Origin: Batillaria attramentaria
Taxonomy: Eukaryota; Mollusca; Gastropoda; Batillariidae
DNA length: 64,000 nt
Direction of reading: 5' to 3'
Assembly: GCA_018292915.2 (NCBI GenBank)
Contig: JACVVK020000227.1
Span: forward strand, 458,001 to 522,000
Shown piece by piece: positions 7,776 to 16,675 of this stretch. The notes below the pieces were generated by a model. The model made no database searches and was not told where the DNA came from. It saw only the letters and a program-made list of their open reading frames with translations. Position 1 is the first letter of the stretch. Every line of letters starts with the position of its first letter. The translations under genes were made by a program, and so were the position numbers.

Positions 7776-10700
7776 CATGTTTTTCTGACAAAACTGATGA
7801 CTCTCTAGACAGCCAAATTGTGAGTGCCGTAACTACTACAAGTTAACAATACATGTCGTCACAGACAACACAAAAAGACGTTATAACAACACCACATCCT
7901 CGTGACCGACCTTTCTTTGTGGGATGAATCCTGTCAGTGTAGATGTAGGAGAGAACCATTTCAAATGCTCGTGGATTCGTGTCCGGCAACTGAACCACCA
8001 GGCTGCCTCGTTCACTGACATCTCGCTGTAATGAGAAAGAAGAAAACCTTTTGAACTTTGTCTTGCAAGACGCAGAACTTGTGACAGTGACCAAGAAAAA
8101 GATAAGAGTTGGATACTATCCACTACCTGACTGGCTACAGAGAAAACGCAGACAGCAAGCGACAGAGAAGCGGTAGTGACTGCAAGGTGGAAAAACAAAT
8201 AGAAGGTATGATGGTTCTTGGGGAAAAAAATGCAAGTTATAGTCAAGGAAACTGGAAGTCAACGTACCACATAGACAAAAACAAACTGAGTCATACCTGA
8301 GTTTTGGCTTTGCGGATCTTTTCTCGTAACCATGGAGATCTTGCAGCAACCAGGGCAATGTGAGCTGAGATCTGTGTTTGTTCCTGATAACGAAAAATAA
8401 AACATGCACATCATTAGACGACAGTCATGTTCCAATCTTTCCTCGGAAAAGTTATGGTCAAAATCAACACTGCTGGCCAAATGTGCACGGTGCTCTGTAG
8501 GAACATGGTAATTTGCATCTTTATGTGTGAAGTAAAAATATGGACTACGTAGCCTTAGATGACACCACCACTTCCGCTACAATACAATGCATTATCCCGA
8601 AAGTGAAGACATACATGTAATAGAAGCCTAACCGTGCTTACAGAGTAAACAACAATGTAGACTAGTGTTAGTACTTATCAGAGTAAACAACAATGTAGAC
8701 TAGTGTTAGTACTTATCGCTCGTTACAGTGACTCACCTCCCCAACAATGTAGACTAGTGTTAGTACTTATCGCTCGTTACAGTGACTCACCTCCCCAACA
8801 ATGTAGACTAGTGTTAGTACTTATCGCTCGTTACAGTGACTCACCTCCCCAACAATGTAGACTAGCGTTAGTACTTATCGCTCGTTACAGTGACTCACCT
8901 CCCCAACAATGTAGACTAGCGTTAGTACTTATCGCTCGTTACAGTGACTCACCTCCCCAACAATGTAGACTAGCGTTAGTACTTATCGCTCGTTACAGTG
9001 ACTCACCTCCCCAACAATGTAGACTAGCGTTAGTACTTATCGCTCGTTACAGTGACTCACCTCCCCAACAATGTAGACTAGCGTTAGTACTTATCGCTCG
9101 TTACAGTGACTCACCTCCCCAACAATGTAGACTAGCGTTAGTACTTATCGCTCGTTACAGTGACTCACCTCCCCAACAATGTAGACTAGCGTTAGTACTT
9201 ATCGCTCGTTACAGTGACTCACCTCCCCAACAATGTAGACTAGCGTTAGTACTTATCGCTCGTTACAGTGACTCACCTCCCCAACAATGTAGACTAGCGT
9301 TAGTACTTATCGCTCGTTACAGTGACTCACCTCCCCAACAATGTAGACTAGCGTTAGTACTTATCGCTCGTTACAGTGACTCACCTCCCCAACAATGTAG
9401 ACTAGCGTTAGTACTTATCGCTCGTTACAGTGACTCACCTCCCCAACAATGTAGACTAGCGTTAGTACTTATCGCTCGTTACGGTGACTCACCTCCCCAA
9501 CAATGTAGACTAGCGTTAGTACTTATCGCTCGTTACGGTGACTCACCTCCCCAACAATGTAGACTAGCGTTAGTACTTATCGCTCGTTACGGTGACTCAC
9601 CTCCCCAACAATGTAGACTAGCGTTAGTACTTATCGCTCGTTACGGTGACTCACCTCCCCAACAATGTAGACTAGCGTTAGTACTTATCGCTCGTTACGG
9701 TGACTCACCTCCCCAACAATGTAGACTAGCGTTAGTACTTATCGCTCGTTACGGTGACTCACCTCCCCAACAATGTAGACTAGCGTTAGTACTTATCGCT
9801 CGTTACGGTGACTCACCTCCCCAACAATGTAGACTAGCGTTAGTACTTATCGCTCGTTACGGTGACTCACCTCCCCAACAATGTAGACTAGCGTTAGTAC
9901 TTATCGCTCGTTACGGTGACTCACCTCCCCAACAATGTAGACTAGCGTTAGTACTTATCGCTCGTTACGGTGACTCACCTCCCCAACAATGTAGACTAGC
10001 GTTAGTACTTATCGCTCGTTACGGTGACTCACCTCCCCAACAATGTAGACTAGCGTTAGTACTTATCGCTCGTTACGGTGACTCACCTCCCCAACAATGT
10101 AGACTAGCGTTAGTACTTATCGCTCGTTACGGTGACTCACCTCCCCAACAATGTAGACTAGCGTTAGTACTTATCGCTCGTTACGGTGACTCACCTCCCC
10201 AACAATGTAGACTAGCGTTAGTACTTATCGCTCGTTACGGTGACTCACCTCCCCAACAATGTAGACTAGCGTTAGTACTTATCGCTCGTTACGGTGACTC
10301 ACCTCCCCAACAATGTAGACTAGCGTTAGTACTTATCGCTCGTTACGGTGACTCACCTCCCCAACAATGTAGACTAGCGTTAGTACTTATCGCTCGTTAC
10401 GGTGACTCACCTCCCCAACAATGTAGACTAGCGTTAGTACTTATCGCTCGTTACGGTGACTCACCTCCCCAACAATGTAGACTAGCGTTAGTACTTATCG
10501 CTCGTTACGGTGACTCACCTCCCCAACAATGTAGACTAGCGTTAGTACTTATCGCTCGTTACGGTGACTCACCTCCCCAACAATGTAGACTAGCGTTAGT
10601 ACTTATCGCTCGTTACGGTGACTCACCTCCCCAACAATGTAGACTAGCGTTAGTACTTATCGCTCGTTACGGTGACTCACCTCCCCAACAATGTAGACTA

Positions 10701-13700: not shown

Positions 13701-16675
13701 TCCATAGTCTTCATGCAAGGTGCATCGTGGGTAACTTGAAAACTGAAACAGAGCAGTCACATGATGCAGAAGATGATAACAACAGCATCTCTAACAAAAC
13801 AGCCATGTCACATGATGCAGAAGATGATAACAACAGCATCTCTCACAAAACAGCCCTGTCACATGATGCAGAAGATGATAACAACAGCATCTCTCACAAA
13901 ACAGCCATGTCACATGATGCAGAAGATGATAACAACAGCATCTCTCACAAAACAGCCATGTCACATGATGCAGAAGATGATAACAACAGCATCTCTCACA
14001 AAACAGCCATGTCACATGATGCAGAAGATGATAACAACAGCATCTCTCACAAAACAGCCCTGTCACATGATGCAGAAGATGATAACAACAGCATCTCTCA
14101 CAAAACAGCCATGTCACATGATGCAGAAGATGATAACAACAGCATCTCTCACAAAACAGCCCTGTCACATGATGCAGAAGATGATAACAACAGCATCTCT
14201 CACAAAACAGCCCTGTCACATGATGCAGAAGATGATAACAACAGCATCTCTCACAAAACAGCCATGTCACATGTTCAAGTTTTTCAAACTGCCTTACCTG
14301 ATTTACTCAAATGGAATTTGGGTGACGAGACTCTGACTTGTAAAGAGACAGGAACGCCCAGAAACATCATTATACAGGCTCCCTGAAACTTACAGAATCT
14401 GTAAGATACAAACCTGGAACCTGTAGATCTCTCCACTGCGTACATTGTTATCCACTGTGCCACCGAAGATGTACATAGCATCACCGACCACGGCTGCAGC
14501 GTGGAACAAGCGTCCAGCAGGAATCTGACAGACACAAAGGGACAGTCCACGTTATAATGAGTGAAGAAATATGAGACTCCAAACCAGAACTGACTTTAAT
14601 ATGACACATGCACAATCTGTTGTCAGACATCAAGTTGTAGTTTTAGCATCTGTCACACAGACCTTGCGTCATGCAAAGAGAAAACCCAGGTCGCAGGTCG
14701 CCGCAGATGGTTCAATAAAAAAAAAAAACAGGAAAGTGAGTGGTGATGCACTGAGGTGACAAGCTGCCCACGAAAGAAGCAGGCAGAATTTCCTAAAAGA
14801 AACAATAAAAAAAAAAATGTAAGACAAACGACTCACCTGACTATCTACTGAGGGATTTGTAATGGACCACGTCTGTGAGTCAAGGTCAAAACTGCAAAGA
14901 CAAGGACGGGAACATGTAATGAGGAAGCATCATCAACAGACCAAACGTTCTGCACACATGTAATGAGGAACATGTAATGAGGAACGTGTAATGAGGAACG
15001 TGTAATGAAGAACGTGTAACTAGGAACATGTAATGAGGAACATGTAATGAGGAACATGTAATGAGGAACCATCATCAACAGACCAAACGTTCTGCACACA
15101 TGTAATGAGGAACGTGTAATGAGGAACGTGTAATGAGGAACATGTAATGAGTAACATGTAATGAGAAACCATCATCAACAGACCAAACGTTCTGCACCCA
15201 TCATCAACAGACCAAATGTTCTGCACACATGTAATGAGGAACATGTAATGAGGAACATGTAATGAGGAACCATCATCAACAGACCAAATGTTCTGCACAC
15301 ATGTAATGAGGAACATGTAATGAGGAACATGTAATGAGGAACCATCATCAACAGACCAAACGTTCTGCACACATGTAATGAGGAACGTGTAATGAGGAAC
15401 GTGTAATGAGGAACGTGTAATGAGGAACATGTAATGAGGAACCATCATCAACAGACCAAACGTTCTGCACACATGTAATGAGGAACATGTAATGAGAAAC
15501 GTGTAATGAGGAACATGTAATGAAGAACATGTAATGAGGAACCATCATCAACAGACCAAACGTTCTGCACACATGTAATGAGGAACGTGTAATGAGGAAC
15601 GTGTAATGAGGAACGTGTAATGAGGAACATGTAATGAAGAACCATCATCAACAGACCAAGTGTTCTGCACACATGTAATGAGGAACGTGTAATGAGGAAC
15701 GTGTAATGAGGAACGTGTAATGAGGAACGTGTAATGAGGAACATGTAATGAGGAACCATCATCAACAGACCAAACGTTCTGCACACATGTAATGAGGAAC
15801 GTGTAATGAGGAACGTGTAATGAGGAACATGTAATGAGGAACATGTAATGAGGAACCATCATCAACAGACCAAACGTTCTGCACACATGTAATGAGAAAC
15901 ATGTAATGAGGAACATGTAATGAAGAACATGTAATGAAGAACATGTAATGAGGAACATGTAATGAGGAACATGTAATGAGGAACATGTAATGAGGAACAT
16001 GTAATGAGGAACATGTAATGAGGAACCATCATCAACAGACCAAACGTTCTGCACACATGTAATGAGGAACATGTAATGAGGAACATGTAATGAGGAACAT
16101 GTAATGAGGAACCATCATCAACAGACCAAACGTTCTGCACACATGTAATGAGGAACGTGTAATGAGGAACATGTAATGAGAAACATGTAATGAGGAACCA
16201 TCATCAACAGACCAAACGTTCTGCACACATGTAATGAGGAACATGTAATGAGGAACATGTAATGAGGAACGTGTAATGAGGAACATGTAATGAGGAACAT
16301 GTAATGAGGAACGTGTAATGAGGAACGTGTAATGAGGAACATGTAATGAGGAACCATCATCAACAGACCAAACGTTCTGCACACAATATAAAAAGTATTT
16401 ATAGGACAGAGCGTCTTTATGGAACAAGAGTGACTTTTACAGGTATTATTTCATTACCATGGTACCACAGCACCATAACGTACCAGTGTAGTTCGTTGGG
16501 CAGCGTCTGTCCTGTAGCGCCACCAAACACATACAGATGTCGGTCAAACGAGACCATGGTGTGTCCATAACGTTTTTCTGGAGGTGGAGGTGCACCACGC
16601 AATATGTGTTCTGTTGAGATTCGTGTCCATCTGGAAAAATGAAGAACAAAAAATTGCTCAGTCAAGGCGACTCGT

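What the first reader, a model, noticed from the sequence alone, without database searches (positions are those of the whole stretch)
8643..13742. A 5-kb intronic array made of about 92 copies of the host exon's own splice donor
On the LZTR1 strand, exon 11 ends CATTGTTGGGGAG and the intron begins GTGAGTCACTG. The same junction sits in every 54-bp unit of the array that follows, so intron 11 starts with about 92 consensus donors in a row, all but the first being decoys. Any later donor adds a TGA or TAA within seven codons and would cut the protein in BTB1. The array clearly arose by tandem duplication starting at the exon border. How U1 and the spliceosome choose the first donor, and whether this lowers LZTR1 output, is an open question.
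Basis: partly seen in the sequence, partly recalled or inferred. Interest (0 to 1): 0.85.

Follow-up and report, generated by a model that had tools for sequence, protein, structure and literature searches.

The report
Splice-donor minisatellite in a snail gene
In a mud snail's LZTR1 gene the end of one exon, with its splice donor, has been copied about 92 times in a row into the next intron; similar but shorter repeats are known from human genes, and the cell most likely ignores nearly all copies but the first.

Summary
The window, most likely from the mud snail Batillaria attramentaria, carries an intact 21-exon LZTR1 gene on the minus strand. Exon 11 ends at 13650. From its last 13 bases onward a 54-bp unit is repeated 92 times (13662-8696), and 92 of 92 units keep the donor GAG|GTGAGT. 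Any of the 91 later donors would add a stop at the 7th codon.

The kind is known: a minisatellite supplying several donors is published for human IFI6, and repeats at exon-intron boundaries for recent human paralogues. Exon 5 of the same gene shows a possible first step, a 26-bp duplication across its donor.

I take the array to be a young, mostly tolerated expansion, the first donor being chosen by proximity across the exon.

One property is unusual: for all 91 possible mis-splices the retained units form a GT...AG interval whose removal restores the correct mRNA. The internal acceptor is weak, so this is only a possibility. I had no RNA data.

The parts
4480..19171 (-). LZTR1 coding region, 21 coding exons, 786 aa, one terminal stop
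   Evidence: homologues
13650..13742 (-). exon 11 (93 nt, phase 0 at both ends)
13644..13652 (-). the presumed true donor of intron 11, GAG|GTGAGT
8696..13662 (-). 92 copies of the 54-bp unit (one is 53 bp), each with GAG|GTGAGT; first 13 nt of copy 1 are exon 11
8731..8739 (-). last (92nd) donor copy; splicing from it would leave an intron of 353 nt and an exon of 5006 nt
8641..8695 (-). distal edge: one 38-bp derived unit and a 17-nt partial unit, both without the donor; both begin with the 8-nt CATTGTTG found in exon 11
8297..8383 (-). exon 12, acceptor TTATCAG|GAACAA
17842..17950 (-). exon 5, whose donor is also tandemly duplicated
17806..17859 (-). 26-bp x 2.1 duplication across the exon 5 border (GGAAGTTTGAGGGGAG|GTAAGTGTGT); second donor starts at 17815
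13756..14273 (-). 51-bp x 10.2 array filling most of intron 10, ending 13 nt before exon 11; no strong donor in it

Best explanation
The array is a young minisatellite that grew by tandem duplication of a 54-bp segment spanning the border of LZTR1 exon 11 and intron 11, perhaps seeded by the 8-nt direct repeat CATTGTTG present in the exon end and at the distal edge of the array. Purifying selection holds only the first copy, because it is the exon. The rest expanded freely because the spliceosome defines exon 11 (93 nt) across the exon, pairing its upstream acceptor with the nearest donor. Later donors are used rarely, mainly copies 2 and 3, where the exon stays within the gene's usual size; those transcripts carry an early stop and are presumably degraded. 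Shown here: the sequence, the gene, the stops, the homogeneity, and a second smaller duplication at exon 5. Inferred: the seed, the donor choice, the decay of mis-spliced RNA and the near-neutrality.
For: Unit and exon end are identical and the exon end is coding sequence with counterparts in relatives. The gene is intact, 786 aa with one terminal stop, and 80-92% identical to the LZTR1 of seven other gastropods and a brachiopod, so the first donor must be used often enough. Few variants lie among the 92 units: 59 identical, a contiguous block of 27 with T>C, 3 distal units with G>A, one T in copy 1, one 1-nt deletion; edges differ and the middle is uniform, as in recent expansion. The exon 5 donor is duplicated once in the same way. 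Exon lengths with donors 1-3 are 93, 147 and 201 nt, within the 54-208 nt of the gene's exons; donor 4 gives 255. Published human minigenes with two identical strong donors used the upstream one exclusively under exon definition (PMC9225289, passages). For IFI6 the introduction of PMC4526556 says two downstream repeat units serve as further donors, giving three mRNAs.
Against: No RNA evidence from this snail was available. 17 of the gene's 20 introns are 152-508 nt; if short introns are recognised across the intron, the LAST donor (intron 353 nt) would be favoured, as in the classical result quoted in PMC9225289. The minigene rule comes from human cells and two donors, not 92, and did not hold simply when both donors were weakened in large exons (exon skipping). 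Predicted RNA folding does not expose the first donor: mean unpaired probability 0.13 for it against 0.32-0.49 for copies 2-9 in an 8-unit model. The 8-nt seed is a post hoc match.
Confidence: 0.7

Rival explanations
1. Attenuator. A steady fraction of transcripts uses donors 2 to 92, gains the stop at codon 7 and is destroyed by nonsense-mediated decay, so the copy number of the array sets LZTR1 dosage.
For: 91 of 91 later donors give the stop; all 92 donors have the same 9-mer; LZTR1 dosage matters in animals that have been studied (recalled, no call).
Against: No RNA or population data. Identical strong donors under exon definition gave exclusive upstream use in minigenes. The uniformity of the units is explained by recent expansion without selection.
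Confidence: 0.12
2. Self-restoring (ratchet-like) array. Each unit ends in AG and is followed at once by GTGAGT, with a TACTAAC branch-point-like heptamer whose branch A lies 23 nt upstream of the AG's end. Whole units are spliced out one or several at a time, or mis-spliced exons are re-spliced, always regenerating the correct exon end.
For: For 91 of 91 mis-splice products the retained units form a GT...AG interval whose removal gives exon 11 joined to exon 12 exactly; all 4186 pairs of donor copies bound such intervals. Of the gene's 20 introns, AG|GTRAGT occurs in two: 91 times in intron 11 and once in intron 5. Introns born from tandem duplications with proto-splice sites are published (PMC4974935 abstract and introduction; PMC3629103 passages).
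Against: The internal acceptor is poor: it has G at -3 where 20 of 20 real acceptors of the gene have C, and 9 of 16 pyrimidines against a median of 11, range 8-15. The donor-to-branch distance within one unit is 30 nt, probably too short (recalled). TACTAAC is one event copied 92 times, so it may be chance.
Confidence: 0.06
3. Assembly artefact. The array is far shorter in the animal, or was made uniform by polishing.
For: The published Batillaria assembly used PacBio subreads with FALCON-Unzip, then Pilon with short reads (PMC10382545, passages); short reads cannot place variants inside such an array (inference).
Against: Library fragments of about 20 kb can span 5 kb. The variants are ordered in blocks, and both edges have their own states.
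Confidence: 0.08
4. The last donor, not the first, is the main one (intron definition), so the array is an enormous exon and LZTR1 is normally truncated here.
For: The intron from donor 92 would be 353 nt, near most of the gene's other introns; no AATAAA or ATTAAA lies in intron 11.
Against: The ten exons downstream are open and conserved, including BTB2, which makes no sense if they are rarely translated.
Confidence: 0.03

Closest known systems
Human IFI6 (6-16) minisatellite with multiple splice donors (Turri et al. 1995, not held; seen only as a citation and through a passage in PMC4526556)
   Same: A minisatellite at an exon-intron border whose repeat units act as alternative splice donors of the host exon; three mRNA species by use of two downstream units.
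   Different: There the units are short and add amino acids (recalled: 12 nt, about 26 copies). Here the unit is 54 nt, there are 92 copies, and use of any downstream unit brings a stop.
Internal tandem repeats at exon-intron boundaries of human segmentally duplicated genes (PMC2812944, passages)
   Same: Minisatellite expansion at exon-intron boundaries changes splicing and can form new introns; 27 intron modifications reported.
   Different: The repeats of that study average about 30 bp x 4 copies, in young paralogues; here 54 bp x 92 in a conserved gene of a mollusc.
Intron gain by tandem duplication of a segment with a proto-splice site (model and cases in PMC4974935, abstract and introduction; fission yeast, PMC3629103 passages)
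   Same: In the AGGT model the duplicated segment holds AG|GT, so neighbouring copies bound a GT...AG interval whose removal leaves the protein unchanged; the same geometry holds here.
   Different: The segments lay in exons (in fission yeast 24-nt units, proto-site AGGC by the original paper, AGGT by the later one) or across an acceptor in potato, and the new intron is used. Here the segment lies across an existing donor and use of the interval is not shown.
Recursive (ratchet) splice sites of long introns (recalled, no call)
   Same: Juxtaposed AG|GT in an intron.
   Different: Mediocre pyrimidine tract and G at -3 here; 91 copies in one intron; recursive use not shown.

Membership tests
Minisatellite | tandem array of units of roughly 10-100 bp | tested here: met
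   54 bp x 92 by TRF and by direct count
Minisatellite at an exon-intron border giving multiple donors (IFI6 kind) | repeat unit spans the host exon's end and carries its donor | tested here: met
   13 nt exon + 41 nt intron; 92 of 92 units with GAG|GTGAGT
Minisatellite at an exon-intron border giving multiple donors (IFI6 kind) | at least one downstream copy is used as a donor in RNA | not testable with these tools
   no RNA reads at hand
Tandem-duplication intron gain (AGGT model) | duplicated segment contains AG|GT, bounding a removable interval | tested here: met
   91 of 91 mis-splice products restorable; 4186 of 4186 intervals
Tandem-duplication intron gain (AGGT model) | the interval is spliced out in vivo | not testable with these tools
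   no RNA reads at hand
Recursive splice site | strong 3' splice site (pyrimidine tract, YAG) directly before GTRAGT | tested here: not met
   GAG instead of CAG; 9 of 16 pyrimidines, gene median 11, range 8-15
LZTR1 | Kelch propeller followed by BTB-BACK modules, orthologous over full length | tested here: met
   Pfam Kelch, BTB (2 stretches), BACK; the four best hits are gastropod proteins at 84-89% over 98-100% of the query, three of them named LZTR1

The most novel reading that the evidence does not exclude
The array is a self-correcting splice trap: whichever of its 92 donors is taken, the retained units are bounded by GTGAGT and GGGGAG and are removed in a second splice (or the intron is removed stepwise, unit by unit), so exon 11 is always rebuilt exactly. 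Such an array could grow without limit and without cost.
Probability: 0.06. Interest if true: 0.85.

Novelty: new member of a known kind. Interest (0 to 1): 0.45.

Why it matters
It is a natural test of splice-site choice far beyond a two-donor minigene: 92 identical donors compete for one acceptor. The first makes the shortest exon and the last the shortest intron, so the exon-definition and intron-definition rules predict opposite ends of the array. Which copies are used can be read directly from long cDNA reads. Exon 5 of the same gene, with two copies of its donor, gives a possible early stage for comparison.

Tried and rejected
RNA structure as the reason for choosing the first donor: rejected, since the first donor is the least accessible in all four models folded (1, 2, 4 and 8 units), and four units fold only about as stably as shuffled units (-68.9 against a mean of -59.9, s.d. 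10.7).

Array abutment as a rule: the intron 8 and intron 10 arrays also come close to exons, but they fill most of their introns, so closeness is expected. By exact recurrence of the 12-mer across a border within 300 nt, 2 of 20 donors (exons 5 and 11) and 0 of 20 acceptors are repeated. Outside the three large arrays 144 of 7662 gene positions recur in this way, and over the whole gene span 6957 of 14667, so exon 5 alone is weak evidence of a special process, and an array touching one border is not in itself improbable. Both duplicated donors share GGGGAG|GTRAGT and no other donor of the gene does (exon ends, donors); this was noticed after the fact.

Secondary use of array RNA (polyadenylation): no AATAAA or ATTAAA in intron 11; not pursued.

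A Batillaria LZTR1 gene model was looked for: none named Batillaria among the 120 listed of 870 hits, nor, with exons 1-11 plus the read-through peptide as query, among the 120 listed of 165. Many rows carry no name, so nothing was learned.

Literature searches used: (10 of 10). None of the listed titles and abstract starts describes a donor array of this size or one in a mollusc; the lists were capped and the library lacks most subscription papers, so this is not proof of absence.

Exon 6 was first placed 39 nt too short and the start codon 24 nt too late; corrected. Two searches and alignment 26 used the shorter protein, and the later start. One search's stop count for exon 11 is not affected, as the frame is the same.
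Full report
What is there. The minus strand of the window carries a complete LZTR1 gene: 21 coding exons from 19171 to 4480, 786 codons, one terminal stop. The protein has Kelch, BTB and BACK domains. Its four best hits are proteins of Babylonia areolata, Pomacea canaliculata, Gigantopelta aegis and Haliotis asinina (84-89% identity), all named LZTR1 but the Pomacea entry, which is called hypothetical. The organism is most likely Batillaria attramentaria: a TRIM-like ORF of the window is an exact entry on a contig of 1,059,955 bp, and its nearest listed relatives, several on a contig of that same length, are Batillaria proteins. 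That identification rests on this one ORF.

The array. Exon 11 (13742-13650, 93 nt) ends CATTGTTGGGGAG|GTGAGT. Starting with those 13 exon bases, a 54-bp unit is repeated 92 times, 13662 to 8696. All 92 keep GAG|GTGAGT. On a recalled donor scale this is the fourth strongest of the gene's 20 donors. Outside the array, sites at least as strong number five on the minus strand of the whole window, four of them in LZTR1, and none on the plus strand. Intron 11 is 5266 nt, of which about 250 nt are not array. The units fall into six types: 59 of the main type, a contiguous block of 27 with one T>C change, three distal units with G>A, and three single ones. The distal edge holds a 38-bp derived unit and a partial unit without the donor.

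Consequences in RNA. If any of donors 2 to 92 were joined to exon 12, translation would meet TGA at the seventh codon after exon 11, in 91 of 91 cases, giving 408 residues instead of 786. Exon length would be 147 nt with donor 2, 201 with donor 3, 255 with donor 4 and 5006 with donor 92; the gene's coding exons range from 54 to 208 nt.

How the first donor is probably chosen. In PMC9225289 (passages read) human minigenes with two identical strong donors on one internal exon, flanked by introns of 365 nt, used the upstream donor exclusively. With both donors weakened, the larger exons were skipped and the smaller ones kept the upstream preference. The authors describe a cross-exon proximity preference, opposite to the cross-intron preference known from intron-defined splicing. 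Exon 11 lies between introns of 671 and 5266 nt, which fits exon definition. The opposite rule would favour donor 92, whose intron would be 353 nt, and 17 of the gene's 20 introns are 152-508 nt. RNA folding gives no help: the first donor is the least accessible. So choice by exon definition is the best explanation, inferred and not shown.

Origin. The repeated exon end encodes the FIVGE of BTB1. In the alignment of nine sequences its F and G are invariant, and the final E is shared by five of eight relatives, so this is old coding sequence and the exon is the source. A second donor of the gene, that of exon 5, is tandemly duplicated once: 26 bp, 16 of exon and 10 of intron. Its second copy would add a stop at once. 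Two of 20 donors and none of 20 acceptors recur in this way. The background is 144 of 7662 positions outside the large arrays, and 6957 of 14667 over the whole gene, so exon 5 is suggestive only. The unit boundary CATTGTTG occurs in the exon end and at the distal edge and could have seeded the first duplication.

An unexpected property. Because each unit ends in AG and the next begins GTGAGT, the units retained by any of the 91 possible mis-splices form a GT...AG interval, and its removal restores exon 11-exon 12 exactly (91 of 91). Each unit also holds TACTAAC, its branch A 23 nt before the end of that AG. This is the geometry of the published AGGT model of intron birth (PMC4974935, abstract and introduction). 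A fission-yeast case with 24-nt repeats is given as AGGC in its own paper (PMC3629103, passages). Against it, the internal acceptor has G at -3, where 20 of 20 real ones have C, and a mediocre pyrimidine tract. I give it 6%.

Comparison with what is known. A minisatellite that supplies several splice donors is known from human IFI6 (Turri et al. 1995, seen as a citation; passage on three mRNAs in PMC4526556). Repeats at exon-intron boundaries that change splicing are known in recent human paralogues (PMC2812944, passages). This array is therefore a new member of a known kind. What is special is the number of perfect copies, the stop that follows from any later one, and the place in a conserved gene.

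Limits. No RNA reads, no second genome and no raw reads could be examined; the own-genome search did not complete. The published Batillaria assembly, presumably the source of the window, used PacBio subreads and Pilon (PMC10382545, passages), so the copy number is approximate and unit differences may have been smoothed.

Noticed in passing
17806-17859 (-): The donor of LZTR1 exon 5 lies in a 26-bp x 2.1 tandem duplication; use of the second copy gives an immediate stop.
   Followed up: yes
57133-57366 (+): A 21-bp x 11 array whose unit holds a fairly strong donor, CTG|GTGAGT; I looked at the start of the array only and identified no exon border.
   Followed up: partly
34296-44449: A 10-kb array of a 73-bp unit, about 138 copies, 97% matches.
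   Followed up: no
29529-30179 and 47210-48119: A 196-bp tandem repeat with a similar consensus occurs at two separate places in the window.
   Followed up: no
25069-26808 (+): Single open frame for a RING/B-box (TRIM-like) protein with many close relatives in Batillaria, several on a contig of the same length: probably a lineage expansion.
   Followed up: partly
8661-13130 (+): A 1489-aa antisense open frame across the array; it follows from a unit length divisible by three and is not evidence of a gene.
   Followed up: yes
17413-17206 (-): Exon 6 carries an insert (RDEMRDACQPKGNSFCRMVGRTV) shared with Babylonia and Pomacea and, less well, with Physella and Aplysia, but absent from the Haliotis, Lottia, Gigantopelta and Lingula entries aligned.
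   Followed up: partly
62327-63655 (-): Open frame for a rhodopsin-family receptor (7tm_1).
   Followed up: no
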